Shown: piece by piece, positions 1,802-27,745 of the stretch
How positions within the stretch are numbered: the first letter of the stretch is position 1
How the letters are laid out: each line of letters starts with the position of its first letter
IMG/VR virus record: IMGVR_UViG_3300049846_000338
Location: 1-27,745 of that record
Reading direction: 5' to 3' (one strand)
DNA: 27,745 nucleotides
DNA from: a virus
Notes under the pieces: model-generated
Told to the model about the DNA's origin: nothing
What the model saw: the letters and a program-made list of their open reading frames with translations, nothing else
Database searches by the model: none
Position numbers and translations under genes: made by a program

Positions 1802-1988
1802 TCTCTATAGCTTTCAATTGCTGTTGTTTATACTCCAGAAGATTAGATATATCTTCATTTGTTAAGCTAACAAATTCTAGCATCTCATCAATGGTGTCAG
1901 TACGATACTTTACTCCATCAACTGTAGCTTGCCATTTATTTACTGGTGTATCATAGGTAGCTACACCGCCATTGACTAAACTGATCAT
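1776..1988 (-). CDS. Small hypothetical tail-module protein
   Basis: This is a 70-residue protein. Its ATG at 1988-1986 overlaps the TGA stop of the upstream fibre gene in an ATGA arrangement, and its end overlaps the start of the next gene by 26 bases. Such coupling on both sides argues that it is a real gene. The first half is short and beta-like (NGGVATYDTPVNKWQATVDG); the second half is acidic and helical (DEMLEFVSLTNEDISNLLEY). Small proteins directly after a tail fibre gene are often assembly factors or chaperones, but I see no motif of a known fibre-assembly family, so the role is unknown. Confidence 0.65.
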   Translation of the reverse strand: MISLVNGGVATYDTPVNKWQATVDGVKYRTDTIDEMLEFVSLTNEDISNLLEYKQQQLKAIENDSINKFI

Positions 1989-5164: not shown

Positions 5165-6809
5165 TTTTTACTGCCTTGCTAGATTGAGCTGCAGATATAG
5201 CCGCTATAATTTTTGTTATTTCTGAATTTAGAAGTGAGCCTGCGACAGGAAGACCCTTTGTTAAATATCTTTTACCTGCAGCGCTATTCATTACTGCCTG
5301 AACAGCAGATGGGCCACCAATAGACAGCGCCGCTGCAGCTAATGCTGTTTCTGGATCGTGAGTTGCATAATACGTGGCTCCGCCTGCCCCAAGACCAAGG
5401 CCGCCACCAGTCAAAATGCTCTGCACTAGCTGTCTTTGAGCAGTTCCAGAATCAGGAACTGCATCATCCAAGATAGCAGCACCACTCCTAGCAAGATCAT
5501 AAAGATCTCCATACCCTTTTTGTCCCTTGGTCTTGTTGGCAGATTCAATGTTCCTAAGTAAAGTTTTAGGCGACAAGACGCCCTCCAAACTATCCTTAGA
5601 AAGCGAAGATGCCGTCTTTTGTATTATCTTATAATTTGAATATTGTCTATTCAATTCTTTCCATATGCCCTTTTTCCCTGTTGGCAAAGATCTTTCAGCG
5701 GCATCGTCAAGAGCGTTTCTTAATGTTCTCAGCGTGTTAGCAGTAAATGGATCAGAAACCGACAATGATCTGGCTTGTTGACTAAGTTGTGATCTAGCGG
5801 CCTGATAAGCCTCCCCAGACATTTTTCCACCTGTATTTAGTATGTCATCTATATAAGACATCACTATAGGCTTTATGTTTGTTGGAAGCTTATTAAGCTG
5901 GTTGGTTTCTACATTTGATAAAACCTGAATAACCTTATCATCTATATTCACGGTTTCGTTTTCTACAAGATCCCCGAATCTCTTGCTAAATTGAGCCTCA
6001 GCAGCCGCTCTAACTTCTGGGCCGATGTCGTCACCTGTTAATCCGGCCTTTTTCAAAGCGGCGGTAGTAAATTTTCTCAGCTGTTTCTCTGTTGCTGCCC
6101 TAGATTTTCCTGACGTAAATGGCATTTTAGCTAATGTCGCTTCTATCAATTCTAGTGTTTTGTTTCCAGTAATTTGAGCAGCGGTCAAATCATCAATTCC
6201 CGCTGCTTTTAGTGTTTCCGTAAACCCCTTCCTAGCCGCGCTAGCAGCCCCGATTGCAATGGGCTTGGCGACTTTTCCAGCGATGTTGACTATTCCAGCC
6301 CCTAAAGCGCCCGGTAGAGCACCGGATAGATCACCTTCGCTTGCTAATGTAGACATAGCCCCCTGCACAGCGCCTGCTGCAGGAACTCCTAATAAACCCT
6401 GTCCCAATCCCAATGCTTTTGTTACAGATCCAGCCGGAATTGCCGTTGTTAATATATTTCCAGCAACTTGACCGGTGCCGAAATATCCAGGCCTTTCTTT
6501 TTGAGCTAATCCTTGTCTACCCTCAAGAGACATCTGCCTTGCCATTTCAAGCCCCTCTTGAAATGGAACTCCTTCGGAAACTTTAGCCGTTAACGCAGCT
6601 ATAACATCCCTTGGCTGCTGAATTGCCCCATATATAGCCCCCCTACCAAAAGATTCTGCCCTTCCTATTGTCGGCTCTGCAGAATCAACATTTCTTGACG
6701 TCTTATCTGCATCAGGAAATTTCTTAAGGATCATTTGTTTTATTTGATCACCCGGCATGTCGTCTGGGAACCTAACTCTATCTCCGTTTGGCATAGTGAT
6801 TACAGGCAT
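5154..6809 (-). CDS. Probable internal virion / DNA ejection protein
   Basis: This 551-residue protein starts with a short domain, PNGDRVRFPDDMPGDQIKQM, followed by LKKFPDA. That pattern (a Gly-Asp turn, FPDxM, then an amphipathic helix) opens many large phage internal virion proteins. Residues about 110-190 are Gly/Ala-rich and hydrophobic, the middle is long and helical, and residues about 465-510 form a second Gly/Ala-rich hydrophobic stretch (TGGGLGLGAGGATYYATHD). Hydrophobic segments flanking a helical body suit a protein that leaves the capsid and helps form a channel through the cell envelope. It overlaps the upstream gene by one base. No lysozyme or peptidase motif is visible. The role is inferred. 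Confidence 0.65.
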   Translation of the reverse strand: MPVITMPNGDRVRFPDDMPGDQIKQMILKKFPDADKTSRNVDSAEPTIGRAESFGRGAIYGAIQQPRDVIAALTAKVSEGVPFQEGLEMARQMSLEGRQGLAQKERPGYFGTGQVAGNILTTAIPAGSVTKALGLGQGLLGVPAAGAVQGAMSTLASEGDLSGALPGALGAGIVNIAGKVAKPIAIGAASAARKGFTETLKAAGIDDLTAAQITGNKTLELIEATLAKMPFTSGKSRAATEKQLRKFTTAALKKAGLTGDDIGPEVRAAAEAQFSKRFGDLVENETVNIDDKVIQVLSNVETNQLNKLPTNIKPIVMSYIDDILNTGGKMSGEAYQAARSQLSQQARSLSVSDPFTANTLRTLRNALDDAAERSLPTGKKGIWKELNRQYSNYKIIQKTASSLSKDSLEGVLSPKTLLRNIESANKTKGQKGYGDLYDLARSGAAILDDAVPDSGTAQRQLVQSILTGGGLGLGAGGATYYATHDPETALAAAALSIGGPSAVQAVMNSAAGKRYLTKGLPVAGSLLNSEITKIIAAISAAQSSKAVKNDQ

Positions 6810-8113
6810 TATTTAAAATACTCCGTATAATCGACTTCCAAACTCACTGGCGCTTGTTTTTTAGGATATTGAATACCAATATCATAAGGCTTGGCTGCCG
6901 ATGGAACCTTTGAGGCTTCTCTCTCATATCTATTAATCGCCCATTTAGCCTGTCTATCAGAAATCTGGATTATCTTTCTAATGGCTTTTTCATCAAGATT
7001 AATTTGTCCAGCCGCTGCCTTTTCAGCATAATCCCTATCAGCGTCAGACAATCCAGTGCCTGATCCGAACAATTTAATTATTCTTCCTACCTGTTGCGCT
7101 CTCATAGCAAGAAATGCCTGAGTATTTGCTACTGGGTCTTCTGCTAAATCCACTCCAGATTGTGAGAGCGCCCTGCCCATATTAACGAGGAAATCTGCGC
7201 CATAGCCAGTTATTACTCCTTTATCCAAAACTTCTCTTGCGGCGGCGTTAGCGTAAAGAGTTTCTTCGGCATCTAGAGCAGCTTCTCTTTTAGCTGTGAA
7301 TTGTTCTGCTATGCCCTTAGAGATGTCTTTTGATAGCTCCTCTCCACCAGCAACCTGTTGAGTTGTGGAAACTAGACCCGGCTGAGGAACGATCTCTCTA
7401 GTTATTGGATCTTTAGCATACATTTTTCTTTCTAGCGGTGACATTCCGCCTCTAGAGAGAGTTTCAACTCTTGTTTTTAGTAAACTAAGTTCGTTATCTT
7501 CTTGCGGAGTCCTGGATGTTTTTGAGGATAATTCACTAATTCTTGCTATATTTCTCTCAAACTCCGCATTACCTGATCCACCACTTGCCCTCTGTTCTGC
7601 CAGTGCCGCTTTGCTCTGTGCGTCAACAAGACCGCTAATGCGTTCTTCTTCAAGCTGATTATAACTAACTGGTTTACCAGTTTGAACCAATCTAAATAAA
7701 GCTTCACTTAGATATTGTTGCGGAGATAGAGATTTAGATCTTTGTTTTGCCCATTGAGCTAAAATTTTGTTGGTTTGATAACTGTTACCGGGATCTACAT
7801 CTTCTGGATGTTGAAGAACAAAATTAACAGCATCATCGTATTCTTGAGGAGTTTTGGCATAGTTTTTTACATGCCTATCTAACTCTCTAGCTTGAGGAAC
7901 GCCTGCATCAATAGCTTGCTTGAAATCTTCAACTCCTGCAGGCTGTTGTTGAGGGAGTGGCATAGGTGCAGACCTAATACCAGCCAGCAGGTCATCTCCA
8001 GTAGGCTGAGGTGCTGGAGCCTTACTATTCATTATGGCTGTTATTTTATCAGCCCTCATCAATTCTTCAGGCCGTTGGAAAGATCCATTAAGATAATTAA
8101 GGAAATCTGTCAT
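6809..8113 (-). CDS. Probable internal virion / DNA ejection protein
   Basis: This 434-residue protein is mostly helical and polar. The N-terminal 60 residues are Pro/Gln-rich (KAPAPQPTGDDL, PMPLPQQQPAG). The segment from about residue 300 to 390 (NMGRALSQSGVDLAEDPVAN, then GSGTGLSDADRDYAEKAA) matches a pattern I know from phage injection or internal virion proteins: a GxGTGLSDxDxxYA block followed by a helix. It is coupled by ATGA to the upstream 205-residue gene and shares one base with the downstream 551-residue gene. Three such genes in a row after the tail nozzle mirror the ejection-protein triplets of T7-like and P22-like phages. The exact role is inferred from order. Confidence 0.65.
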   Translation of the reverse strand: MTDFLNYLNGSFQRPEELMRADKITAIMNSKAPAPQPTGDDLLAGIRSAPMPLPQQQPAGVEDFKQAIDAGVPQARELDRHVKNYAKTPQEYDDAVNFVLQHPEDVDPGNSYQTNKILAQWAKQRSKSLSPQQYLSEALFRLVQTGKPVSYNQLEEERISGLVDAQSKAALAEQRASGGSGNAEFERNIARISELSSKTSRTPQEDNELSLLKTRVETLSRGGMSPLERKMYAKDPITREIVPQPGLVSTTQQVAGGEELSKDISKGIAEQFTAKREAALDAEETLYANAAAREVLDKGVITGYGADFLVNMGRALSQSGVDLAEDPVANTQAFLAMRAQQVGRIIKLFGSGTGLSDADRDYAEKAAAGQINLDEKAIRKIIQISDRQAKWAINRYEREASKVPSAAKPYDIGIQYPKKQAPVSLEVDYTEYFK

Positions 8114-8727
8114 TGTCTATTCCAATCTACCCTACCAACATTATTAAAATATGTTGATGACCCTGGTTTAGCTGGTTGATAGAATTTACTGATCTGGTCA
8201 GGCGTTGGCCCTCTGGTCGCAGAAAAAATATCCAATAGCTGCTGCGGTATTTTACCTTGCGACTCAATTAGCTCCATTTTCTGCCCAAGAGCGCGTTCTT
8301 GCCTAGCCGCCTGCGGCGCTATCTGACCAGTCATGCCTTGAGCCGACCGCAGTATCCTGTCCATAGCCGTTTGCTTTGCCTGTTGTGCGATACCTGGCAT
8401 ACCCCTTGATGTAAGGAAGTCCACGGCCTCGTCTGCCCTCTCTGGGTTAAAGAACGTGTTCTGACGCCCCAGAGCTCCTTGGCGGCGGTCTGCGTTCTGC
8501 ATAGCCCTAATGGTGGATAAAAGCCCAGAAGCCCCCTGCGCCTCTTCCTCCTGAGCCATTTGCGCCAGCAATGGGCTATTCGGGTCAGACAATGCTTGGT
8601 AAAGAGCAAAAGCCTGCTTTTCAGCAGGAGTTTGTACGTTATATTTAGATACGGCCCCGTACTGTCTTCTAGCGCTTACAGCGTCAGCTATGAACGGTAT
8701 CGCCCGAGTGAGCCAAGAAGCGCCCAT
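8110..8727 (-). CDS. Hypothetical virion protein, first of three ejection-type genes
   Basis: This 205-residue protein begins with a short amphipathic hydrophobic helix (MGASWLTRAIPFIADAVSAR) and is otherwise Ala/Gln/Arg-rich and helical, with no cysteine. The next gene overlaps it by 4 bases (ATGA), and its ATG directly precedes the TAA of the nozzle gene. By analogy with phages that encode three internal virion proteins downstream of the tail nozzle, the smallest of the three often comes first. That order, not a recognised domain, is the reason for this assignment. It could also be another minor head or tail protein. Confidence 0.6.
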   Translation of the reverse strand: MGASWLTRAIPFIADAVSARRQYGAVSKYNVQTPAEKQAFALYQALSDPNSPLLAQMAQEEEAQGASGLLSTIRAMQNADRRQGALGRQNTFFNPERADEAVDFLTSRGMPGIAQQAKQTAMDRILRSAQGMTGQIAPQAARQERALGQKMELIESQGKIPQQLLDIFSATRGPTPDQISKFYQPAKPGSSTYFNNVGRVDWNRQ

Positions 8728-17548: not shown

Positions 17549-17776
17549 TCAGGCTGATTTACTCTCAAATATCACCCTTAGATCGTCCAGCATATCTGCC
17601 TGCGCTCTAAAATACTCTATCTTCTCTACTGGGCAATCACGCAGTCCCATATGGGGATTGTAGAGCCTGCATAAGTAATTCCATATCTCCTGAGTTACTT
17701 GGTTCCGCCGCCACTGGTCCATTAGGTCCTTGTCCGGCAACTGGTGAGTTCGGTTGGATTGGATTACCATGCTCAT
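17549..17776 (-). CDS. Small protein overprinted on the end of the portal gene
   Basis: This is a 75-residue protein whose first 140 bases overlap the portal gene in another frame. The core (MDQWRRNQVTQEIWNYLCRL and EYFRAQADMLDDLRVIF) resembles a family of small phage proteins that follow the portal and read 'W..n.vTq.f...L', so I take it as real. The ATG at 17776 has GGAG 6 bases upstream. An alternative ATG at 17722 (MDQW) has AAGGA 5 bases upstream and would shorten the overlap. The function is unknown. Confidence 0.65.
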   Translation of the reverse strand: MSMVIQSNRTHQLPDKDLMDQWRRNQVTQEIWNYLCRLYNPHMGLRDCPVEKIEYFRAQADMLDDLRVIFESKSA

Positions 17777-19928
17777 CTAAAACTCCATTGATTTGACCAA
17801 AAAATACACCTAAGTGTTGAGCGCGATGTCTAAGTAGATTGGAAATCAACTCTTCTTTTTGCTCCGATGACATTGACTGCACAAGGCGCTTAATACCGGG
17901 ATCTCCGCCAGTACCGAGTTTGCCAACCTTGTTATCCTGCCCAAGAACGGAAGGTTTCTTCGGATCTTCACCCTCAAGAGGAATCTCCATAGCCTCGCCC
18001 TGATCCAAGAATGACGAGATAAACTTATCAATCATCTGGATATGTTTAACGTGGTCTTGATCAGGGAACACATCAAACAACGGACGTTTATCAGGTGGCA
18101 TAATGTAATATGCGTTCTCAAGGTTTTGATCGTCAATTCTAGCGGGTTCAGGAACGCTAGGTTGAGGAAGAACTTCATCAATATTCTCCACATCAAGAGC
18201 CTCAAGATACCTACGCCCTGCCAAGTATAGAGATTTAGGGTTTTGCGCCGTTAACGGGAACTGCAGGACGAAATCAACCTCAGCCTGCGCTTTTGCGAGC
18301 TTTTGAGAGCGAGTAGCATACTTAGGATCAAAGATAGGGACAATTCTAAAGTCATCCTGATAGTCCTCTCTAGTGACAGTTATTTGTTGATCACCGTCAA
18401 AGAAATATTCCTCTGACTGCATATATTTAGCGTTCAGCCTAAATACCTTATGGAGTTCTTCCTCCATAGATACGGCCATAAACTCCTGCACGCTGCTATA
18501 TAGCTGAAGTCCCTGCTCAAGCATGGAAAGCAAAGCCTGCGGTTGGTACACCTTGTCAGGCTGGCCTGCTAGGATGTCGCTATTGTTTGCAACCCTCTGG
18601 GCAACGCCCTGCAGGTACTCAATAGCCTGTTGAATTGCAGGATCTGGGCCGCGAAAATCAAGCTTCATAAAGTGCTTTTGAATATCAGCCACATTTCGCG
18701 GGATCTTGATACCCTTGCCCATAACGAGTTGGAAATCATCTCCAGGAATACCAAGAGCGTCAGAGATAAGATATGTAAGGTTTCCAACAGTAGAAAGCTC
18801 ACCAGCATCAATAAACATGCGGGTTAGTTTGTTCAGAGCAAAGTTAATTTTAGCCAGTAGGAACCCAAATCCAAACCCATAGAAGCCATCAGGGTTCGGC
18901 AAGAACTGATAGTGAGTGAAGTGCTCAATAGGCTCTTTACCCTTTGTCGGGTTGCCCATCTCGTCAACCTCATACCGGACCTGAATACGAAGGGTTTTCC
19001 TAGCCTGAGCGTCTACCCATACAATGTACGGCTCAGATATACCGTCCTCGTCAAGATCAAGCAGGCAATGCTGCTCAAGAATAAGCGCTCCTTTTGTGCT
19101 CTCGCTTGAGATGTCGGAGTCAGATACGCCCTGCTGCTCATCAACAACTTCTTGAGCCTCACCAATGTCCTCATGACCAGTATACGGCTCTGCAGGACTA
19201 ATGAAATAACCCATTTTATGAAGGATCTTGGTGTTATTGACAGAGACGAACTTTACGTGCGTCTTTCTCTCTAACTCTTCAATGGAGATTTGTCCTACAT
19301 GGTACGGAACAACAAGATCTTGCGCCCTAACTCGCTCGATAACTACCCGACGCTTCATATGATCGAAATACGTCTTGGTAAAGTCTGACCCATGAAGCCC
19401 ACAGGCCATAAACATCTGGTTTTTGTTGCGCTTGTACGTGCGATCAACTACACCAAGCTGGAAGTTCATATGCGCGGCAATTCTCTCTCCGCGCTCTCTA
19501 GCATCCTGAGAAGACTTGCCTACAGGAATAGCCTCTACAAAATACCTATTAGGGAAGAACGCCTTATATGTTCTGCTTTGGAACTGGTTAACAGCCTCTG
19601 TCAGCAGCGGGATAGACTCATTGCTCGACCCATCCCAAGGCGGATTCTCAGCCATATCGCTCTGGTAGAAAAGACGAAGATAGTCTGCGTTCTTCTCTTC
19701 CCAGTCAGACCTGCTGGTAAGATCATCCTTATAGTTTTTGATTACATCGTTCGCAATTTCCTGAAGCTCATCTTCTTCAAGGTCTTCTGCGAGGTTAGTT
19801 TCCTCTATAGGAAGCTGCGGCCCTTGTGGGGCAGGAGGCAGCACTTCTTGATCTTCTAACGGAATCTCTATTATCTCGTTAGGATATTCACTGTTTTCTA
19901 GAAAGTTCGCTTCCTCTGGTAACTGCAT
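17637..19928 (-). CDS. Portal protein (P22-like, large type)
   Basis: This 763-residue protein would form the ring through which DNA enters and leaves the capsid. A disordered acidic N-terminus (1-60) is followed by NYKDDLTSRSDWEEKNADYL, then PPWDGSSNESIPLLTEAVNQ and FQSRTYKAFFPNRYFVEAIP, the pattern of the P22-type portal core. HYQFLPNPDGFYGFGFGFLL, NKLTRMFIDAGELSTVGN and GVAQRVANNSDILAGQPDK are the characteristic stem and clip helices. The C-terminus (from about 690) is Pro/Gly/Asn-rich and overlaps the next gene. It starts 41 bases inside the end of the glycosyltransferase fusion gene, with GGAAGAG upstream. The assignment rests on these patterns plus its place before scaffold and capsid. 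Confidence 0.85.
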   Translation of the reverse strand: MQLPEEANFLENSEYPNEIIEIPLEDQEVLPPAPQGPQLPIEETNLAEDLEEDELQEIANDVIKNYKDDLTSRSDWEEKNADYLRLFYQSDMAENPPWDGSSNESIPLLTEAVNQFQSRTYKAFFPNRYFVEAIPVGKSSQDARERGERIAAHMNFQLGVVDRTYKRNKNQMFMACGLHGSDFTKTYFDHMKRRVVIERVRAQDLVVPYHVGQISIEELERKTHVKFVSVNNTKILHKMGYFISPAEPYTGHEDIGEAQEVVDEQQGVSDSDISSESTKGALILEQHCLLDLDEDGISEPYIVWVDAQARKTLRIQVRYEVDEMGNPTKGKEPIEHFTHYQFLPNPDGFYGFGFGFLLAKINFALNKLTRMFIDAGELSTVGNLTYLISDALGIPGDDFQLVMGKGIKIPRNVADIQKHFMKLDFRGPDPAIQQAIEYLQGVAQRVANNSDILAGQPDKVYQPQALLSMLEQGLQLYSSVQEFMAVSMEEELHKVFRLNAKYMQSEEYFFDGDQQITVTREDYQDDFRIVPIFDPKYATRSQKLAKAQAEVDFVLQFPLTAQNPKSLYLAGRRYLEALDVENIDEVLPQPSVPEPARIDDQNLENAYYIMPPDKRPLFDVFPDQDHVKHIQMIDKFISSFLDQGEAMEIPLEGEDPKKPSVLGQDNKVGKLGTGGDPGIKRLVQSMSSEQKEELISNLLRHRAQHLGVFFGQINGVLDEHGNPIQPNSPVAGQGPNGPVAAEPSNSGDMELLMQALQSPYGTA

Positions 19929-21588
19929 TTACATACTCTTCCAATGTTGGGGTTCCAGCTCGCATCTTCTCCAAGTTATCATTATACTCTTTCTGCCACA
20001 TTTTAAAAAGTCGATGGTGCTTGTATAGCCATCCAGCCATACCGTCTCCATAGATATTGATGTTAAGATCTGGCCTAGACTTATAAAGATCCTTCAGCTC
20101 GTTACTCTGCGCCAAGAACTGCCCTTCTGTCCAAAACGTGCGAGTAATGTACTTACCCTTGTACGTGTTTGTCCCAATAGTCAATTCCATATACTTTGGT
20201 TGCCCATCCGAGTTCTTTTCATTCATGTCTGGCTTCGCGTGGTGACATAGATCATATCCGAAAAGATGGAACTTGCTATACCCAAACATATCTGAGAATA
20301 GGCCAATGCTTCTGGTTGATGTTGCTGACCCACCAGAAACCGGAAGATCGGCGCAATTCATAAGGTCAGTCTCACCAGCGTTAACGTATGCGTGATAGCC
20401 AATTACCTTGCACTTGTTATCGTTAAGGGTACTTACAACGCTTGGATCGCACATGCTAGCTACAAAGTACACAGGGTCAGTGTCAGGCGACTTAACAAAT
20501 CCCTCTACGTGTCCTCTTGGGTCTAGCAGCACAACAGCCCAAGGCTTGATGCCGTGGATCTTTAAGGTTTCTATAGCGTGTTTGACCGCAATAACCTTAG
20601 CTCCGTTATCTTGAAGCGCCTTGATCTCATCAATATGGTTAGATAGTGAAGGTCCCGCCGCACATATAACAACCTCTCCGTCTGGATTCCTTTTGCACAA
20701 ATTTACCCAAGATCTGATCTGGCTAAGGTTAGCGGATACGTTCGCCTTAATTTTATCATGATCCAGGCAATTTCTTGTCTTGATCTTAATATCTGAAGAG
20801 TCAACTACTCCGTTACCCTGCTGTTGCTGCATGTCCTTAATCTTTCCCCTGTTTTCTGCGGCTTGAAACTTCCTATTTCCCTTCCGGTGTGCCATTTTCT
20901 CAGCCAATTTCGTCTTAGGCCACACATCAATATCAGTAAGCTCCTTAACATAGAAAGGAGCAAGATTTTTAGTGGGCAATCCAACGATACAATGATCGAG
21001 AACGTGGCAATCGGTCCATCCGCCAGGATAAGATTTGAATGAGTCGTTAATATACTCGTTCTTCATCTTCAGCAGAAGATCATACCCTCCTGCTTTGAGG
21101 TTATATGCTACAAATCCGCACTCACTGTAGAAGTTCTTTCTGCCAAGATAGCTGACTACTTCATCTCCGGTTGGCAGAACTTCCCTTAGCCAGTCCAGCG
21201 TAATAGGCTTCTTAGTGATAACGTCAGCATCAAGCCAGATAAGATAATCGTATTCATCCTTAACAGCCTCAGCACACCTCTCAAGAGCGAAGATCTTATG
21301 TGAGAACTTTACAACATCATCAAGATATGATTTAGGCTTATGATCTTTCCATCTCTCGATGAATTGCTTTTGCTCATCTTCAAACGTTCTGGCAATGAAT
21401 GATCTTTCCTCTCCAACTATATCTATAATATGGTTGTTTAGAGTGACGAAAGATTCTCTCGGCTGCTCGTCTAACTGAATATAGATCTTAATGTCTTCAG
21501 GCCAATATTGATGGAATGATGCAAGCATTTCTGCTGCACATACCTCAAAGTGGTTATTGGGAAAGGTGGTGCATACGGCTATTTTCAT
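19888..21588 (-). CDS. Fusion of GT-A glycosyltransferase and DUF115/Maf-like domain
   Basis: This is a 566-residue two-domain protein. Residues 1 to about 240 look like a GT-A glycosyltransferase: KIAVCTTF at the start, then YDYLIWLDADV with a DxD metal motif at 120-122, CGFVAYNL, and WTDCHVLDHC. Residues about 300-540 match DUF115 (MptE-like / motility accessory factor family): VVICAAGPSLS at 307-317, VIAVKHAIETL, PWAVVLLDP, PVSGGSATST and FHLFGYDL. Maf proteins of this family transfer nonulosonic acids to flagellin; archaeal MptE is a pterin kinase. The fusion suggests a bifunctional sugar transferase, perhaps acting on protein. It is ATGA-coupled to gmd upstream and overlaps the portal gene by 41 bases. 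The acceptor is unknown. Confidence 0.8.
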   Translation of the reverse strand: MKIAVCTTFPNNHFEVCAAEMLASFHQYWPEDIKIYIQLDEQPRESFVTLNNHIIDIVGEERSFIARTFEDEQKQFIERWKDHKPKSYLDDVVKFSHKIFALERCAEAVKDEYDYLIWLDADVITKKPITLDWLREVLPTGDEVVSYLGRKNFYSECGFVAYNLKAGGYDLLLKMKNEYINDSFKSYPGGWTDCHVLDHCIVGLPTKNLAPFYVKELTDIDVWPKTKLAEKMAHRKGNRKFQAAENRGKIKDMQQQQGNGVVDSSDIKIKTRNCLDHDKIKANVSANLSQIRSWVNLCKRNPDGEVVICAAGPSLSNHIDEIKALQDNGAKVIAVKHAIETLKIHGIKPWAVVLLDPRGHVEGFVKSPDTDPVYFVASMCDPSVVSTLNDNKCKVIGYHAYVNAGETDLMNCADLPVSGGSATSTRSIGLFSDMFGYSKFHLFGYDLCHHAKPDMNEKNSDGQPKYMELTIGTNTYKGKYITRTFWTEGQFLAQSNELKDLYKSRPDLNINIYGDGMAGWLYKHHRLFKMWQKEYNDNLEKMRAGTPTLEEYVNAVTRGSELSRKQ

Positions 21589-22592
21589 CTTGTCACCATC
21601 ATATTAACAAGTTCTCTGAAACCAACCTTAGGTTTCCACCCAAGAACTGAATTGATCTTTGAAAAGTCTCCTCTGAGATAGTTAAGATCGTTAGGTCTAT
21701 AGAAATTGCTATCAACCTCCATAACCAACGTATCTCCTACATATCCTTTTTCTTCGGCTCCTGATCCTTCAAACCTTATTTCCAATTTATATACTTTAAA
21801 CGCTTCCTGAAGGAACTCTCTAACGCTATGCACTTCTCCTGTAGCCACGATAAAATCATCCGGCTTATCATGTTGGAGCATCATCCACATGGCTTCTACA
21901 TAGTCACCGGCGTACCCCCAGTCACGTTTGCTATCAATGTTCCCTAATTTAATAGGAGACATATCTCTTTTATTCCCGCCTAAAATACCAGTGATAAGTC
22001 TATTTACTCCATTGGTGATCTTTTTCGTCACAAAGTCTGGATGCCGCAATGGTGACTCATGATTGAACAAAATGCCGTTGCTTACGAACTGGTCGGCCTC
22101 ATGCCTAGCGTTCACGCCAGCCCAGTGAGAGGCAACCTTGGCTACCGCATATGGAGACTTGGGCTGGAAAGGAACGTATTCTCCTGTAATTGATGCTGAG
22201 GCGTATCCGAACATCTCACTGGTTCCAGCTTGATAGATTCTTGCATTTGGTACGATCTGCCGAGCCGCCAGAAGCACATTCAAAAATCCGGTATAGTTAA
22301 CTTCGCATGTCATTTTCGGGCATTTAAAGCTATATCCGACATGAGACTGTGCAGCGAGATTGTATATTTCATCTGGATTGCTGACTTTAATGGCCATAGA
22401 TACTGCTGACTCGTCAGTAATATCTCCCTCAATAATCGTCACCTTTCCGAGAATATCCAGATATTTATGGTTCTCCATAGATGTTCTCTGTTTGGTAAGA
22501 CCATAAACATTATATCCCTTATCAAGCAAAAACTTAGCTAGATAGCTACCATCCTGACCGGCAACGCCTGTGATTAATGCTGACTTCATCAT
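21585..22592 (-). CDS. gmd: GDP-mannose 4,6-dehydratase
   Basis: This 335-residue protein is a short-chain dehydrogenase/reductase of the extended type, converting GDP-mannose to GDP-4-keto-6-deoxymannose, the precursor of GDP-rhamnose, GDP-fucose and related sugars. ITGVAGQDGSYLAKFLLDKG (7-26) carries the GxxGxxG NADP site. NLAAQSHVGYSF, GTSEMFG with catalytic Thr124 and Glu126, and SPYAVAKV with Tyr148 and Lys152 complete the active site. FNHESP and DWGYAGDYVEAMWMMLQ are signature segments of Gmd. The length is slightly below the usual 340-375. All catalytic residues seem intact. It is ATGA-coupled to both neighbours. No fcl (epimerase/reductase) gene follows, so the keto sugar must be used by another enzyme or by the host. 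Confidence 0.93.
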   Translation of the reverse strand: MMKSALITGVAGQDGSYLAKFLLDKGYNVYGLTKQRTSMENHKYLDILGKVTIIEGDITDESAVSMAIKVSNPDEIYNLAAQSHVGYSFKCPKMTCEVNYTGFLNVLLAARQIVPNARIYQAGTSEMFGYASASITGEYVPFQPKSPYAVAKVASHWAGVNARHEADQFVSNGILFNHESPLRHPDFVTKKITNGVNRLITGILGGNKRDMSPIKLGNIDSKRDWGYAGDYVEAMWMMLQHDKPDDFIVATGEVHSVREFLQEAFKVYKLEIRFEGSGAEEKGYVGDTLVMEVDSNFYRPNDLNYLRGDFSKINSVLGWKPKVGFRELVNMMVTR

Positions 22593-23359
22593 ATATTCCT
22601 ATAGTTAACTACGCACATATCCGCTGCAGGGTTTTGAGGCTCTTTGTTCATCTCTTTATAAGCCCTCCACCAATCATCTGCAAACATGCAGTCCTGATAG
22701 TCTCTGAACCAAGGACCGCCCTCAGAGTAGTGGATTACTTTTGGGTTAACATTTCCTGGGCTTGATCCATCAATCCAGTTAAATGATGCCGGAAGATCAC
22801 CTATCTCATTATCTTTAAGCCAAGAGAATGTATGCAGGAAGTTACCAGTCGCTGTATTCACCATCTCTTTTGTGAGGAATTTATTAGATGGATGACTGCA
22901 GTTGATAAGCATAAAGCTAGACCAGTTCTTCCTGAAATACCCCTGCTGAGGAGATCCGTCCATCTTAAGGCTCTTACTTACCTTTTGCCTGTGCTTCACG
23001 CACATCACGGCGTACCTATCATCTGCGTGCTGGAATATCTCCTTAACATCACATTTGAATAGCATGTCGCAATCAAGAAAAAGCGCCCAGCCTTTAAAAC
23101 CCATTAACTCTGGTACAAGAAATCTTGAGTGGCTAAACTCAGTGCTAAACGGCTTGCCATCCAGCATATCAATCCTGTTGCCGGTCAGCGCCTCAACAAA
23201 CCAAGGTCTTTGGAAAAACCCCTGTTTCCTAAGTTCCTTGTGATATAGGGGAATGACCCTGACATGGCCAGATTTGTACCTATCCAGAGAGAACTTGCAC
23301 ACGTCATATGCAACCTTTTCCCTATCATCCCACCCAATAAACACCCTTAGTTCAGACAT
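22589..23359 (-). CDS. GT8-like glycosyltransferase
   Basis: This is a 256-residue single-domain GT-A protein. It starts LRVFIGWDDREKVAYDVCKF, typical of family 8-like phage and bacterial transferases. FSHSRFLVPELMGFKGWALF is followed by LDCDML with the DxD motif at residues 96-98. The C-terminal part has NPKVIHYSEGGPWF, matching the H..G..KPW motif that closes the GT8 active site. No membrane segment or signal is present, so it acts in the cytoplasm with a nucleotide sugar donor. It overlaps the upstream gene by 13 bases and gmd by 4. Donor and acceptor cannot be read from the sequence. Confidence 0.82.
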   Translation of the reverse strand: MSELRVFIGWDDREKVAYDVCKFSLDRYKSGHVRVIPLYHKELRKQGFFQRPWFVEALTGNRIDMLDGKPFSTEFSHSRFLVPELMGFKGWALFLDCDMLFKCDVKEIFQHADDRYAVMCVKHRQKVSKSLKMDGSPQQGYFRKNWSSFMLINCSHPSNKFLTKEMVNTATGNFLHTFSWLKDNEIGDLPASFNWIDGSSPGNVNPKVIHYSEGGPWFRDYQDCMFADDWWRAYKEMNKEPQNPAADMCVVNYRNI

Positions 23360-24054
23360 GCAACTCCCCTATCTTTTATCTCTTCTAAAGTGAATTGTTT
23401 AGGCTCGTAGAACTTCCTTATTTCTTCGTACTTGTAGTACGGAACAACGCTATCGAATAGTTCTGAGTTTCTTACGATCCCATGAGTTGTATATACACCC
23501 TTGCCCATCTCTATCGCTTTCATGACGCCCATGCTATTGAACGCCAGAACAGCATCGCACCACTCAAGTTGCTCATCCAAAGAGTGAGAACCAGCTTCCT
23601 TCTCCCTGATAACCAGTGTATGACCTAACTTCTTTGAAACAGACCTCCAATAGATAATCCAGTCTTCAGGTATCATATCGTTCATGAACGCTGTATACGG
23701 AGTTGGTGGCATCACAAGAATGTTCATAGGCCCTACAGATCTTGTGAACGGCTGAACATTAATAGGTTCTATCATCTGGTTTTTCACCACACGATATTTA
23801 CCTGTCATCTCTTTAAATCCGTCTTTATCTCTATATTCCGCCTCAAAGTACCCGTTATCTACATACCAGAAATCAACACCCATCATCTTCTGGTATCTCA
23901 TAGCAATACCCGATCCACGAAGTATGCCATAGAAAATGCTATTAACATCTTTGTTCTTACTAAAGTTATTTATATGAGATGTTTGAACTCCTGATAGTGC
24001 AAAAGCCCTCATCACTCCCTGGCTTACGCTATTATCTGTGTAGTAGCCTAACAT
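23347..24054 (-). CDS. Capsule-type (GT-B-like) glycosyltransferase, putative
   Basis: I place the start at ATG 24054 (MLGYYTDNSVSQGVMRAFAL, 235 residues). A longer frame begins only with TTG at 24081 and overlaps the preceding gene by 34 bases. The protein lacks DxD-type GT-A features. ILRGSGIAMRYQKMMGVDFW, then YVDNGYF, and near the end WCDAVLAFNSMGVMKAIEMG with KGVYTTHG recall capsule polysaccharide synthesis/export transferases of the KpsS/KpsC kind, where an 'S..G..A...GkPV' loop binds the nucleotide. This is moderate evidence. It sits between a mannose isomerase and a GT8-like gene, so a sugar-transfer role is consistent. Confidence 0.55.
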   Translation of the reverse strand: MLGYYTDNSVSQGVMRAFALSGVQTSHINNFSKNKDVNSIFYGILRGSGIAMRYQKMMGVDFWYVDNGYFEAEYRDKDGFKEMTGKYRVVKNQMIEPINVQPFTRSVGPMNILVMPPTPYTAFMNDMIPEDWIIYWRSVSKKLGHTLVIREKEAGSHSLDEQLEWCDAVLAFNSMGVMKAIEMGKGVYTTHGIVRNSELFDSVVPYYKYEEIRKFYEPKQFTLEEIKDRGVACLN

Positions 24055-24380
24055 TTTCTCTCTATATCGCTTTCTACGCAATGCCCGGTTTGTATCTCAA
24101 GAACCAACGTGCGATTTAAGGCCGTATATTTATGCCAGTAACCAACAGGAACAGTAAAACAGTCCCCACTAGAAACCTCTCCGCCGTCACCAGAAGATAG
24201 GTCTGGAGAGTAGGTCATGAACCAACCATTTCCGAACATAAACAGCCACAGCTCGCTTCTCTTAAAGTGCCTTTGCTTTGATAGCTGGCTTCCCTTGCGA
24301 AAATAGAGAAATTTAATCTTGAAGCCGCTTGCGCTCCAAATAGTTAAATACCATCCCCATTTCCGCTTAGAAAATTCCAT
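24048..24380 (-). CDS. Stand-alone cupin mannose-6-phosphate isomerase (ManC C-terminal type)
   Basis: This 110-residue cupin matches the C-terminal isomerase domain of bifunctional ManC/AlgA proteins. KWGWYLTI (7-14) matches 'PWGWY'. KQRHFKRSELWLFMFGNG (35-52) is the 'lSlQ.H..R.EhW.vv.G' metal-binding motif, with Gln36, His38 and Glu43 kept. FTVPVGYWHKYTALN supplies the last His (83). LVLEIQTGHCVESDIER (92-108) is the 'iEvQ.G....EdDI.R' signature. It interconverts fructose-6-phosphate and mannose-6-phosphate. The N-terminal guanylyltransferase domain of ManC is absent. Its ATG shares one base with the stop of the 42-residue gene (TAATG). It is normal in length for a lone cupin. Confidence 0.83.
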   Translation of the reverse strand: MEFSKRKWGWYLTIWSASGFKIKFLYFRKGSQLSKQRHFKRSELWLFMFGNGWFMTYSPDLSSGDGGEVSSGDCFTVPVGYWHKYTALNRTLVLEIQTGHCVESDIERKC

Positions 24381-24508
24381 TATTTCTTCTTTACGCCCTT
24401 AATAGTACCTTTGCGCTCACTAGCATAAAAAACTTGTTCTCCTTTTTTCTTACCGTACTGCTTAACCATAGATTTTTTGATTTTAGTCCCCTTTTTAGTT
24501 AGTGGCAT
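24380..24508 (-). CDS. Small Lys-rich conserved phage protein (42 aa)
   Basis: This short gene encodes a 42-residue protein that begins MPLTKKGTKIKKSMVKQYGK and ends KGTIKGVKKK, about one third lysine. The pattern 'MPLTKKG.KI..SM..QYG.KKGE.VFYAS.NKG.I.GV' is a small protein I recognise from many phages, often near terminase and portal genes. It has a strong ribosome binding site (AAGGAG, 7 bases before the ATG), overlaps the end of the preceding gene by 14 bases and shares a base with the next start (TAATG). No function is known to me. The charge suggests nucleic-acid binding or a packaging role, which is inference. Confidence 0.85.
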   Translation of the reverse strand: MPLTKKGTKIKKSMVKQYGKKKGEQVFYASERKGTIKGVKKK

Positions 24509-24797
24509 TAGTTTTCTCCTTTATATCCGAGTTGTTTATTACCCATTCACACACCGGAATATAGTTATTGTTAAGTGGTGAGAATGAGTATTTAGTAGAG
24601 AGTTTTCCGTCTTTAATTTTAACCAGTCCGTCATTTAAAGCCTTTGTCACCATGTCAGACTTATAGTACTCTTTGTTTTTTCTCAGGTAACTTCTGCAAA
24701 TAGAAAATTCAACCATATCAATAATAATATCATTGAACTTCTCAGCTATGTCTGGTGAATTAACAATTACGTCTATTTCCCCAAAGCATGTTTTCAT
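24495..24797 (-). CDS. Small hypothetical protein
   Basis: This is a 100-residue protein. I choose the ATG at 24797, which shares a base with the TGA of the upstream nucleotidyltransferase gene (TGATG), instead of the TTG one codon earlier. It looks like a compact alpha/beta domain (MKTCFGEIDVIVNSPDIAEK, then DIIIDMVEFSICRSYLRKN), with a Tyr/Asn/Ser-rich end. I do not recognise it. It lies inside the sugar cassette and overlaps the next gene by 14 bases, which carries that gene's ribosome binding site. Confidence 0.65.
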   Translation of the reverse strand: MKTCFGEIDVIVNSPDIAEKFNDIIIDMVEFSICRSYLRKNKEYYKSDMVTKALNDGLVKIKDGKLSTKYSFSPLNNNYIPVCEWVINNSDIKEKTNATN

Positions 24798-25246
24798 CAA
24801 GCAATTCCCGCATTAGCCAACTTTGCCTGCACAGCCTTATCTACAAGCCTGCTGCTGGCCTGAACCTTGTCATCTCCGCCTATCTCCCAAAGCATTGTTA
24901 TTCCCAGACCTTCGCAAAGTTCTTGTTCTGGAGTGTTCTCTTTCGTCCTGTCTCCGCCCTTTGCGAAGTAGTCAGGCATAATATCTTTCAATGCCTTGCA
25001 AACCGTACCGTCAGCGTCATCAACAGGAACAACAGTTTTAACTCCAGAGATAGCCCTAATGATCTCAGCGCGCTCTTCATATTTCATGAATACAAAACCC
25101 TTCTTGCGCTTAAGCCAGTCATCTGAGTTAAGAATGACCACTAAATCCCCATACATTGCCGCGTGTTTAATATACCTCACATGACCAGCATGTATCGGAT
25201 CAAACCCACCAGAAACACATACCAATGGCGTCCTGTACTTAGACAT
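24797..25246 (-). CDS. RfaE/HldE C-domain-like nucleotidyltransferase
   Basis: This is a 149-residue protein of the HxGH cytidylyltransferase superfamily. GGFDPIHAGH (13-22) holds the nucleotide-binding HxGH. VVILNSDDWLKRKKG is the NSD..lkr.KG segment of the RfaE C-terminal domain, YEERAEIIRAI follows, PDYFAKGGDR (91-100) is the KGGD motif, and SSRLV (131-135) stands at the ISSS position. HldE adds AMP to heptose-1-phosphate; relatives use CTP or other substrates. I start at ATG 25246, which has GGAGGAG and AAGG upstream and begins just before the domain. The longer frame uses TTG at 25288 and overlaps the methyltransferase. In this cassette it could activate a sugar phosphate, but the nucleotide and sugar are not known. 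Confidence 0.8.
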   Translation of the reverse strand: MSKYRTPLVCVSGGFDPIHAGHVRYIKHAAMYGDLVVILNSDDWLKRKKGFVFMKYEERAEIIRAISGVKTVVPVDDADGTVCKALKDIMPDYFAKGGDRTKENTPEQELCEGLGITMLWEIGGDDKVQASSRLVDKAVQAKLANAGIA

Positions 25247-25271
25247 CAACCTTTTCTCCTCCATTTGTCGA

Positions 25272-25838
25272 TCAATCTTGAACACCAAAAACCTGCGCCA
25301 TCATTGTGATGCCGCCGTCTTTAACTTTTCCGCCTACCGGTAGAACAACGGCTCCAGGAAGATCATCTACGATCTTGTTGCAGCCATAGAGTGAGGTATC
25401 TGGGCATTTACCTTCATTGTCTGGGAGGTAGTAATCATCAAATATTACCACTGAGCTTCCCTTGCATTTCTCATAGTCGTTCTTGATTGTCTCTACGCTA
25501 TGACCGCCATCAATGTATGCCAAGTCTGCAACCACTGGGTTCAGCGTCTTACGCGTGTCACCCTTGATGAGATGCACCTCTACATTAGGACATTGATGCT
25601 TGATGAATGTCTCTACGTCTGCGACTTTATAGTGATCCTTTACGTTAAGCTCCTCTTTGTCAGTCTGGTCTGACGCATCTTCAAAAAGGTCGTATCCGAT
25701 ATATTTGACGTTCTTGCGCCATCTGGACGCGTGCTTGATCATTCGGACAGCGTTCTGCCCGTTCCATGTTCCAATCTCTACAATGCTCTCTGGTTTATAA
25801 AGGTCGATAACATGGAGTAGCTGGTCATATCTGGTCAT
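25272..25838 (-). CDS. Class I SAM-dependent methyltransferase
   Basis: This 188-residue protein belongs to the Methyltransf_24 / CmcI-like group. SIVEIGTWNGQNAVRMIK (18-35) holds the SAM-binding E.G...G motif. YIGYDLFEDA (46-55) supplies the acidic residue at the end of strand two. LIKGDTRKTL and AYIDGGHSVETIKNDYEKC are hallmarks of this group, whose IDGxH residues bind a metal or substrate, and VVIFDDYY follows. Such enzymes often O-methylate sugars or small hydroxylated molecules. It starts at ATG 25838 after AGGGGA, 8 bases below the phosphomannomutase stop. Its location among sugar genes suggests sugar methylation, which is inference. Confidence 0.82.
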   Translation of the reverse strand: MTRYDQLLHVIDLYKPESIVEIGTWNGQNAVRMIKHASRWRKNVKYIGYDLFEDASDQTDKEELNVKDHYKVADVETFIKHQCPNVEVHLIKGDTRKTLNPVVADLAYIDGGHSVETIKNDYEKCKGSSVVIFDDYYLPDNEGKCPDTSLYGCNKIVDDLPGAVVLPVGGKVKDGGITMMAQVFGVQD

Positions 25839-25846
25839 AAAATCCC

Positions 25847-26620
25847 CTATCTACTGAGTAAGTACTCTATGACCTCCAGCGTATGATCGACTCCAGAAAC
25901 CTTCAACGAAACATTTTTGGGACAAGCGTCACTTATTCTCTTGACAGGATAATCATTCCCTCCTTCTTCCATCTTGTCTCCCAGGAAGATGAACTCTTTT
26001 CCTCTATCAAGAATGTACTGTGCTGCGCGTGATTTATCTGCGCCTTTGCTGAAGATGTCTATGCTAACTGCCCCTCCTTTCGCAACATCCACCCCCGGCC
26101 ATATGACCTTCAACGCTGCAATTGTGTCGTCTCTCCATGATGCATCGTGCTCTTGACGTACCGTATAAGGTGCATACCGACCAATCCTGCTGAAATTAAG
26201 CATCCTTGGTGAGCGCCACTCTATCCTGTTACCGTAGTGGTCAGGATAATCCTTAAGCATGTAATGAAGCGTTCTCTCTATCTGTGGAGGAAGCGGTGGA
26301 GTTACATCATCCTTCCACATGAGCTTTCCGCGCATTGTGCGAAGGTCATCTCCATTGTTGCAGAACACACCCATAAAATGAGCGATAGGACCATTGAGAA
26401 TATCAACGGTCTTTACGTAGTTGTTACCTGTTACGAAATAAACTTGATAATGCCTTGAGAGCCTGTGCAGAGCGCCCTGCATTGTGTCACTGACTGGAGT
26501 TTGCGGCTCACATATAACTCCATCTATATCTAGCAATATAACTTTATTACGAGTATCTACCGACTTTAGAGACTCCTCCACGCCTGTCTGCGTCGAAGGC
26601 TTTCCTTCTTGAAGACTCAT
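25847..26620 (-). CDS. HAD-type phosphomannomutase (eukaryotic PMM family-like)
   Basis: This is a 257-residue HAD enzyme. ILLDIDGVI (28-36) carries the Asp31/Asp33 nucleophile and acid pair. YFVTGNNYVK (61-70) is motif II. MLNFSRIGR (140-148) corresponds to the 'mlNvSpiGR' signature of eukaryotic PMM. GGAVSIDIFSKGADKSRA (182-199) matches GG.iS.DVF..G.DK, and FLGDKMEEGGNDYP (212-225) matches 'FfGDk...GGNDyei'. PMM interconverts mannose-6-phosphate and mannose-1-phosphate; the length is that of PMM (about 250). The ATG at 26620 has GAGGGG upstream and overlaps the terminase gene by 74 bases. An HAD sugar phosphatase of the same superfamily is the main alternative. Most bacteria use the unrelated ManB type. 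Confidence 0.8.
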   Translation of the reverse strand: MSLQEGKPSTQTGVEESLKSVDTRNKVILLDIDGVICEPQTPVSDTMQGALHRLSRHYQVYFVTGNNYVKTVDILNGPIAHFMGVFCNNGDDLRTMRGKLMWKDDVTPPLPPQIERTLHYMLKDYPDHYGNRIEWRSPRMLNFSRIGRYAPYTVRQEHDASWRDDTIAALKVIWPGVDVAKGGAVSIDIFSKGADKSRAAQYILDRGKEFIFLGDKMEEGGNDYPVKRISDACPKNVSLKVSGVDHTLEVIEYLLSR

Positions 26621-27745
26621 ATTTCCCCTCTTCCCGTTTACTGGCAGTCCATGTTACCGGACGAGAAACAAGGGCATATGACACCTCATCATATACGTGA
26701 TCTTCTTGGCGTGTATCCGGCCCCTTCTCAGGTTGCCTCTCATCCAATTGTAATTCTGGGACAGTTCTCCAAAAATGCAAGCAGTTTTCAGTGACATAGA
26801 ACCCAGGCTCCCCCTCGCCTGCTGCGATCCTGCGTCTGACCTCAAGGTAGTTGGCGGCTCTGTCCTTGAGTGACTGCTCCATAACTACGCCGTTACTGGC
26901 GAAGTTCTCAGCTACGCTTGGGCCATCATGCTCCGCCCACATAGCCGAGTCGCCTATCCTGTAGTCTATATACTCAGCTGTATCTTTAGAACTCTCTCGC
27001 TCTATAGTGTCGAGCATGTTTTTACCTGCATCAATATCCGGGATAATATCCTCGATACCTAGCTCTATAGCTCTTATCTTCTGCGCGACCTGCCAGCTTT
27101 CCTGCCTGCAGCCTTCGTCCGGTTTACCGTTCCATCCATACATCTCTCTGTATCTGATAATGGAGTTCTTTGGTATAACCACATCCTCGTAAGATCCCTT
27201 GCCTTTGAGGACAACATCCTCATCCGGCACGCAATACCACCCAACGCTGTATGGTTTGGCTGTTCCCCAGTCCACGCTGATATATTTAGTCCAGTGCTTC
27301 ATAGGAGTGAAAGATCTTATCATATGTCTATTTCTCGAAATCTTCTCAAATGCAGCTCCAGCTACAATATCCCAGTTGCCTTCCTTCATAGCTCTTACGA
27401 GGTCTGGTGAACCAAGACCATCCAGCTTTTTAAAGTAGTCTGGATCGTTCTGCATTAATGTAGGGTTATCTGCCAATTTAGCTGGAATGAACTGTCTTCT
27501 CATACCTCCTTCTTCTGGAGGCATGTCTCGTATCTCGTCCGGCTTTGTTCCATCAATAAAGCATCTCTTAACCCAAGTGTGTCCGATGCCTCCGGGGTTT
27601 GTGGCCGAGACAATGCCCGGCAGCTTCTTGGCCCATTGTTCTTTGACCTTAAGGCCGCCCAAGCGAACCCGCGATCGCAAGTACCGATATTGGTACTCTG
27701 TGAAGTGAGTTAGCTCGTCCAATAGTAATAGATGAAGCTCTGCGC
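26547..27745 (-). CDS. terL: Terminase large subunit, 5' end outside the window
   Basis: The open frame continues through the right edge; the visible part is about 399 codons. Just before the apparent TTG start at 27722 the frame reads LLLLDE, so the Walker B motif with its catalytic Glu is present (LLLLDELTHFTEYQYRYLRS) and the Walker A part lies outside. SATNPGGIGHTWVKRCFIDG contains the coupling-motif region (ATNPGG). The RNase H-like nuclease follows: YISVDWGTAKPYSVGWY with the first Asp, DIIPDIDAGKNML, then RIGDSAMWAEHDGPSVAENF, and DHVYDEVSYALV with the last acidic residues. TerL cuts concatemeric DNA and pumps it into the head. The C-terminal end (EGKYESSRRKAFDADRRGG) overlaps the next gene by 74 bases. 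Confidence 0.93.
   Translation of the reverse strand, partial: AELHLLLLDELTHFTEYQYRYLRSRVRLGGLKVKEQWAKKLPGIVSATNPGGIGHTWVKRCFIDGTKPDEIRDMPPEEGGMRRQFIPAKLADNPTLMQNDPDYFKKLDGLGSPDLVRAMKEGNWDIVAGAAFEKISRNRHMIRSFTPMKHWTKYISVDWGTAKPYSVGWYCVPDEDVVLKGKGSYEDVVIPKNSIIRYREMYGWNGKPDEGCRQESWQVAQKIRAIELGIEDIIPDIDAGKNMLDTIERESSKDTAEYIDYRIGDSAMWAEHDGPSVAENFASNGVVMEQSLKDRAANYLEVRRRIAAGEGEPGFYVTENCLHFWRTVPELQLDERQPEKGPDTRQEDHVYDEVSYALVSRPVTWTASKREEGKYESSRRKAFDADRRGGVSKVGRYS

What the first reader, a model, noticed from the sequence alone, without database searches (positions are those of the whole stretch)
19888..26620. Ten-gene sugar-nucleotide and glycosyltransferase cassette lodged between terminase and portal
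Terminase and portal genes usually lie close together. Here they are separated by about 6.6 kb holding a cupin mannose-6-phosphate isomerase, a PMM-type mutase, a nucleotidyltransferase, Gmd, a methyltransferase and three transferase-like proteins. The motifs seen (QxH..R.E.W, GGxxSxDxF with GDK..GGNDY, HxGH, GTSE with YxxxK, and DxD twice) are intact, so the block looks functional. Family knowledge gives a route from fructose-6-phosphate to GDP-4-keto-6-deoxymannose. The inference is that the phage makes its own modified deoxysugar during infection and attaches it to virion proteins, host surface or DNA. I know of no described phage with this exact set.
Basis: partly seen in the sequence, partly recalled or inferred. 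Interest (0 to 1): 0.78.

Follow-up and report, generated by a model that had tools for sequence, protein, structure and literature searches.

The report
Sugar-making module in phage packaging operon
This uncultured short-tailed phage, like every relative in its branch that could be checked, carries a block of sugar-making and sugar-attaching genes wedged between its two DNA-packaging genes, most likely to coat its own particles with a custom sugar while they are assembled.

Summary
Ten co-directional, overlapping ORFs (19888-26620, minus strand) lie between TerL and portal; eight encode recognisable sugar enzymes or transferases. The arrangement is not a one-off. In a portal tree, 26 loci with such a module and 4 truncated ones form one fully supported clade. 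On the other side of the tree, 30 loci have TerL and portal adjacent (gap -119 to +437 bp) and 2 hold unrelated inserts. One other fragment (L023) has the same enzyme set in the same order. The constant core is a GT8-like glycosyltransferase plus a two-domain protein whose C-terminal half is MptE-like/Maf; its model's top PDB match is the flagellin O-glycosyltransferase Maf. Methyltransferases, epimerases, an oxygenase and other tailoring genes vary between phages. The nucleotidyltransferase belongs to the cytidylyl/HldE class, not the GDP-mannose pyrophosphorylases, and no such pyrophosphorylase and no second SDR reductase was found in relatives, so GDP-mannose must come from the host. Best reading: a cytoplasmic virion O-glycosylation module with phage-specific sugars (0.5). 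The rival is late modification of the host envelope (0.25). Acceptor, donor and product are inferred. New variant of a known kind.

The parts
26547..27745 (-). Terminase large subunit, truncated by the contig edge; left flank of the module
   Evidence: phrog_979 2.9e-14; 53-75% identical to TerL of five syntenic relatives
25847..26620 (-). Eukaryote-type phosphomannomutase-like HAD enzyme (accessory: only here and in L023)
   Evidence: PF03332 3e-16; aligns to solved PMMs with DxDG, IGR and GDK..GGNDY retained; homologue in L023
25272..25838 (-). Class I methyltransferase (Methyltransf_24), probably sugar O-methylation
   Evidence: PF13578 1.9e-10; the same domain is fused to an MptE-like domain in L022 and, by HMM hit and sequence, in L191
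24797..25288 (-). HxGH nucleotidyltransferase, cytidylyl/adenylyltransferase (HldE domain II-like); likely makes a CDP- or ADP-activated donor
   Evidence: PF01467 4.6e-15; TIGR02199 67.9 bits, below the 181.5 cut-off; nearest solved proteins ethanolamine-P and G3P cytidylyltransferases
24495..24800 (-). ORF101, no assignable family
   Evidence: no family in three libraries at the thresholds used, only a sub-threshold Pfam match
24380..24508 (-). 42-aa Lys-rich ORF between ORF101 and cupin
   Evidence: translation
24048..24380 (-). Single-domain cupin, type II mannose-6-phosphate isomerase-like
   Evidence: PF01050 2.1e-8; QxH..R.E.W, PxGxxH and EIQTG visible in the sequence; conserved in L019, L020, L021, L023
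23347..24081 (-). GTx: putative GT-B glycosyltransferase, Kdo-transferase-like (KpsC/KrkA/WbbB)
   Evidence: no Pfam family; AF2 model pLDDT 88; Foldseek top 13 hits all Kdo transferases, E 1e-5 to 6e-4, TMq 0.33-0.49
22589..23359 (-). GT8-like GT-A glycosyltransferase (phrog_28018), part of the constant core
   Evidence: phrog_28018 1.6e-65; PF01501 3e-4, below its cut-off; present in every complete interval of the clade
21585..22592 (-). GDP-mannose 4,6-dehydratase (Gmd)
   Evidence: PF16363 7.6e-110; TIGR01472 352.6 bits, below the 415 cut-off; aligns end to end with solved GMDs, TSE, SPYAVAK and NHESPLR kept
19888..21588 (-). Two-domain transferase: N-terminal GT-A (IWLDADV) fused to C-terminal MptE-like/Maf domain; constant core, overlaps portal start
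   Evidence: PF01973 1.1e-19, found in 19 of 19 homologues; AF2 model pLDDT 86, top PDB match Maf 5mu5 E 2e-10, other hits retaining GT-A enzymes
17637..19928 (-). Portal protein; right flank of the module
   Evidence: phrog_1216 8e-16; 58-70% identical to relatives

Best explanation
The block is a resident glycan module of an uncultured podovirus-like clade, inserted between TerL and portal and read with the late morphogenesis genes. Soluble enzymes steer host sugar phosphate toward mannose-1-P (cupin PMI, PMM). They take GDP-mannose made by the host guanylyltransferase to GDP-4-keto-6-deoxymannose (Gmd). This is then reduced, by Gmd itself or by a host enzyme, and probably O-methylated. The HldE/CCT-like nucleotidyltransferase makes a second activated donor. 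The Maf-like/GT-A fusion starts the glycan on Ser/Thr of a cytoplasmic virion protein, and the GT8-like and Kdo-transferase-like enzymes extend it before the particle is finished. Tailoring genes turn over between phages while the transferase core stays, which suggests selection for diverse virion surface sugars (adsorption, escape from recognition). Shown: genes, order, families, clade-wide conservation, fold matches, no predicted membrane segments. Inferred: co-transcription, donors, acceptor, product and purpose.
For: Same order in five relatives. A gap of 3.8-6.6 kb filled by GT8+DUF115 in all complete intervals of the clade, against about zero in 30 sister loci. One clade on the portal tree. 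Maf 5mu5 is the top structural match of the fusion's model; Maf enzymes O-glycosylate Ser/Thr of flagellin and share domain pfam01973 (PMC11339370). No candidate membrane segment in any cassette protein (max KD19 1.15). Gene overlaps with TerL and portal. Tailoring enzymes vary between phages. Mycobacteriophages glycosylate capsid and tail-tube proteins with their own glycosyltransferases (PMC12363180). Chloroviruses make GDP-sugars and glycosylate their capsid (PMC5408694).
Against: No acceptor is identified and no virion data exist. MptE-like also names a pterin diphosphokinase family. Known Maf donors are CMP-nonulosonates and no gene for making one was found in the cassette. GT8, Kdo-transferase-like and HldE-like families are common in LPS core synthesis. 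The structural matches cover single domains (TMq 0.32 for Maf, 0.33-0.49 for KpsC/KrkA). The higher Ser/Thr content of the clade's MCP (15.0 vs 13.3%) is confounded by ancestry.
Confidence: 0.5

Rival explanations
1. The module modifies the host envelope (LPS core or capsule) late in infection, blocking superinfection or keeping progeny from sticking to debris. Soluble core-type transferases (GT8, Kdo-like, GT9 in L042) act on lipid-linked acceptors at the inner membrane face.
For: GTx resembles Kdo transferases; the nucleotidyltransferase is nearest to HldE domain II; L042 carries a GT9 heptosyltransferase-like gene; LPS genes in cyanophages are usually read this way (PMC9602691).
Against: No membrane proteins, flippase or polyprenol transferase in the cassette. 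It sits inside the late head operon. The most constant member is Maf-like and abuts portal. Only 2 of 9 relatives carry a tyrosine integrase, so lysogenic conversion is not a general purpose.
Confidence: 0.25
2. Auxiliary metabolism: PMI/PMM/Gmd mainly shift host carbon or mannose flux to favour replication, as was suggested for the MPI of cyanophage S-SCSM1.
For: Cupin MPI and Gmd occur in cyanophages and are discussed as metabolic genes (PMC9602691).
Against: PMM and cupin are the dispensable members; the transferases are the constant ones. Transferases and methyltransferases do not fit a flux role.
Confidence: 0.06
3. The module glycosylates phage DNA.
For: Phage DNA glycosyltransferases exist in other phages (general knowledge).
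Against: No thymidylate synthase/dCMP hydroxymethylase homologue in nine relatives; families unrelated to known DNA glucosyltransferases (general knowledge); located in the late structural operon.
Confidence: 0.03

Closest known systems
Maf (motility-associated factor) flagellin glycosyltransferases, PF01973; Magnetospirillum 5mu5
   Same: Shares the MptE-like/Maf_flag10 domain; top structural match; cytoplasmic protein O-glycosylation
   Different: N-terminal domain is a GT-A transferase (or a methyltransferase in L022/L191); no flagellin context; no nonulosonate synthesis genes found in the cassette; phage late operon
Mycobacteriophage virion glycosylation (Che8, Corndog, Myrna)
   Same: Phage-encoded glycosyltransferases acting on virion proteins (PMC12363180)
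   Different: Here the sugar nucleotide genes come along too, the transferase families differ, and virion glycans are not shown
Chlorovirus (PBCV-1) autonomous capsid glycosylation
   Same: Virus-encoded GMD, conserved core transferases plus variable decorating enzymes, predicted rhamnose methylation (PMC5408694)
   Different: Eukaryotic NCLDV; scattered genes expressed early; unrelated transferases; has a separate GMER
LPS/cell-wall gene clusters of T4-like cyanophages (P-SSM2, S-SCSM1)
   Same: Gmd, type II MPI and glycosyltransferases in a phage
   Different: Large myoviruses; not a TerL-portal insert; no clade-wide constant Maf-like core shown
Short-tailed phages HTVC027P, DSL-LC04, Alcaligenes QDWS535
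   Same: Homologous TerL, portal and MCP with a GroES gene downstream of portal
   Different: TerL and portal adjacent or separated by other genes; no glycan module found between them

Membership tests
Complete phage route F6P to GDP-4-keto-6-deoxymannose | Mannose-6-phosphate isomerase | tested here: met
   PF01050 over cut-off; motifs intact; by homology only
Complete phage route F6P to GDP-4-keto-6-deoxymannose | Phosphomannomutase | tested here: met
   PF03332 over cut-off and catalytic motifs aligned; absent from four of five close relatives
Complete phage route F6P to GDP-4-keto-6-deoxymannose | Mannose-1-phosphate guanylyltransferase (NTP_transferase fold) | tested here: not met
   The nucleotidyltransferase is PF01467, HldE/CCT class; PF00483 absent in 8 related records. 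The rest of the window's own genome is unseen.
Complete phage route F6P to GDP-4-keto-6-deoxymannose | GDP-mannose 4,6-dehydratase | tested here: met
   PF16363 7.6e-110; solved GMDs align end to end with the catalytic motif; below the NCBIfam equivalog cut-off
GDP-fucose or GDP-rhamnose synthesis | Separate 4-reductase (Fcl/GMER or RMD) | tested here: not met
   Only one SDR (Gmd) in each of L018, L019, L020 and L023 records. PBCV-1 GMD makes GDP-D-rhamnose (PMC5408694), so a single enzyme could suffice; not tested here.
Maf flagellin glycosyltransferase | PF01973 central domain | tested here: met
   1.1e-19, 19 of 19 homologues
Maf flagellin glycosyltransferase | Maf fold | tested here: met
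   5mu5 is the best PDB match, E 2.1e-10, 264 columns; TMq 0.32 since one domain matches
Maf flagellin glycosyltransferase | Flagellin acceptor and nonulosonate donor genes nearby | tested here: not met
   No such gene among the cassette families; no flagellin recognised by inspection of the window ORFs
Kdo transferase (KpsC/WbbB type) | Recognisable family profile | tested here: inconclusive
   Fold hits only, TMq 0.33-0.49; PF05159 in 1 of 20 homologues at 0.053
Virion protein glycosylation system | Glycan on structural protein | not testable with these tools
   Needs purified virions

The most novel reading that the evidence does not exclude
An entire uncultured podovirus-like clade has a Maf-type cytoplasmic O-glycosylation system in its packaging operon. 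It has a fixed transferase core and exchangeable sugar-tailoring genes, so each phage dresses its virion in its own sugar, a phage counterpart of serotype variation.
Probability: 0.4. Interest if true: 0.78.

Novelty: new variant of a known kind. Interest (0 to 1): 0.6.

Why it matters
It would show that virion glycosylation can be a lineage-defining, inherited part of a phage's structural module rather than a stray accessory gene, and that flagellin-type Maf transferases have been adopted by viruses. It gives a testable set of acceptors (head and tail proteins in the same operon) and a natural series of tailoring variants that would link genes to sugars on phage particles.

Tried and rejected
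Looked for the same set in cultured phages. PMM and the DUF115 fusion have only remote hits there, and Gmd is common but elsewhere. A single-sequence IMG/VR scan with the DUF115 protein found nothing; the alignment-based scan worked. Rejected the nucleotidyltransferase as a GDP-mannose pyrophosphorylase. Rejected DNA glycosylation. Rejected lysogenic conversion as the general purpose. Considered that the gap pattern came from fetching loci by the DUF115 gene: among loci fetched by the portal or MCP query alone, every clade member with sequence upstream of portal still has DUF115-type hits. Papers describing a TerL-portal glycan module were sought and not found; subscription journals are mostly missing from the library. 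The host could not be assigned; the genome scan found one phage-like contig in a Myxococcales MAG (L191).

Full report
The window is an IMG/VR virus record of 27,745 bases, linear and incomplete. All the genes read as real lie on the minus strand. They run from a truncated TerL at the right edge, through the module, to portal, a GroES-like gene, the major capsid protein, head-tail proteins, a DNA ejection protein and fibre-like proteins at the left edge.

The ten ORFs of the finding are at the stated places. Neighbouring ORFs overlap by a few bases, the first overlaps TerL and the last overlaps portal, so the block is built like part of the late operon; co-transcription itself is inferred. Family scans give PMM (PF03332 3e-16), Methyltransf_24 (1.9e-10), CTP_transf_like (4.6e-15), MannoseP_isomer cupin (2.1e-8), GT8-like phrog_28018 (1.6e-65), GDP_Man_Dehyd (7.6e-110) and MptE-like PF01973 (1.1e-19). 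PMM and Gmd align with solved structures with their catalytic motifs kept. ORF101 and the 42-aa ORF stay unassigned.

The module is a clade trait. Portal relatives L018, L019 and L020 (58-69% identical) carry MT, NT, GTx, GT8, Gmd and DUF115 in the same order at the same place, with the cupin in L019 and L020. L021 and L023 add two more, and L023 also has the PMM, so it holds the same eight enzyme families in the same order. Across all fetched loci with both TerL and portal, 30 have a gap of -119 to +437 bp. Every locus of the window's clade with a complete interval has 3.8-6.6 kb holding a GT8-like gene and a DUF115-type hit. Two cultured phages outside the clade have other genes in the gap (HTVC027P: two proteins with no Pfam match; DSL-LC04: a PcfJ-like protein). 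A portal tree puts all 26 module-bearing loci and 4 truncated ones on one side of a branch with full support.

What is constant and what varies is informative. The DUF115-type protein next to portal and the GT8-like protein recur throughout, and GTx nearly so (not detected in L117). The tailoring set changes: FkbM, Methyltransf_23 and Methyltransf_24 methyltransferases, SDR epimerases, a 2OG-Fe(II) oxygenase and a GT9 transferase, plus a protein whose sequence looks like a radical SAM enzyme (L191, read by eye). The N-terminal GT-A half and the MptE half are separate genes in L036, L048 and L118. In L022 the MptE half is fused to Methyltransf_24, and L191 appears to have the same fusion. The halves therefore probably work together. 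The window is itself mosaic: its TerL (75%) and PMM go with L023, its DUF115 (66%), portal (70%) and MCP (80%) with L018.

Fold evidence. GTx matches no family, but its model (pLDDT 88) hits Kdo transferases KpsC and KrkA at the top (E 1e-5 to 6e-4, TMq 0.33-0.49), so it is probably a small GT-B enzyme of that kind. The DUF115 fusion model (pLDDT 86, pTM 0.51, so domain orientation is unsure) has Maf 5mu5 as its best match. The other leading hits are retaining GT-A enzymes (GT6/GT8 types, LARGE1), consistent with the N-terminal half. Maf proteins share pfam01973 and O-glycosylate flagellin on Ser/Thr (PMC11339370).

Pathway. The nucleotidyltransferase is of the HxGH class whose known members use CTP or ATP on phospho-alcohols or heptose-1-P (general knowledge). 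NTP_transferase PF00483 is absent from eight related records, while all 14 control genomes ring. Gmd is the only SDR in the Gmd-bearing relatives, so the 4-keto product needs a host reductase or Gmd's own reductase activity; chlorovirus PBCV-1 GMD makes GDP-D-rhamnose (PMC5408694). The phage therefore probably boosts and diverts host GDP-mannose rather than making everything itself.

Function. I favour virion protein glycosylation (0.5). The place in the late operon, the constant Maf-like protein abutting portal, and the absence of any predicted membrane segment in the cassette favour a soluble acceptor made at the same time. Mycobacteriophages are a precedent (PMC12363180) and chloroviruses work similarly. 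The main rival is late modification of the host LPS core (0.25), because GT8, Kdo-type and HldE-like enzymes also belong there. DNA glycosylation is unlikely. MCPs of the clade are slightly richer in Ser/Thr (15.0 vs 13.3%), but this is confounded by ancestry and is not counted as evidence.

Limits. Portal and MCP scans use short peptide patterns, so the clade is sampled, not exhausted. Some loci were fetched with the DUF115 protein and necessarily have it, but those fetched with portal or MCP queries show the same pattern. The tree was the quick method. About a third or more of this phage's genome is unseen, judging from related contigs of 41-46 kb. No host, acceptor, donor or product is established.

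Noticed in passing
L182 (HTVC027P) 4510-8641: Pelagibacter phage HTVC027P has two proteins of 483 and 892 aa with no Pfam match between TerL and portal; DSL-LC04 (L187) has a PcfJ-like protein there. The TerL-portal gap may be a general insertion site in these phages.
   Followed up: partly
L191 4030-10102: A contig binned in a Myxococcales MAG is phage-like and carries the module with a radical SAM-like gene and a Methyltransf_24 region apparently fused to a DUF115 region.
   Followed up: partly
L149, L151, L161, L166, L170, L177, L179, L180: Homologues of GT8, GTx, NT, Gmd and the DUF115 protein also cluster within about 10-20 kb in other, apparently unrelated viral contigs (one contig is 155 kb), in another order and partly on opposite strands.
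   Followed up: partly
25847-27745: The window is mosaic: TerL and PMM are closest to L023 while the portal side is closest to L018, so recombination acted within or near the module.
   Followed up: partly
120-1801: Two neighbouring proteins (277 and 281 aa) look like diverged tandem duplicates with Ser/Thr-rich stretches; no relatives among the fetched loci.
   Followed up: no
1985-3223: Repeat-rich protein with many TTAA-type units, weakly like head fibre proteins (phrog_5711); a possible glycan acceptor.
   Followed up: no
24380-24508: 42-aa Lys-rich ORF (MPLTKKGTKIKKSMVKQYGKKKGEQVFYASERKGTIKGVKKK) inside the cassette, function unknown.
   Followed up: no
L018 record 39119-39628: Tyrosine integrase domain in the closest relative (L018) and in L045's record, absent from seven other relatives.
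   Followed up: no
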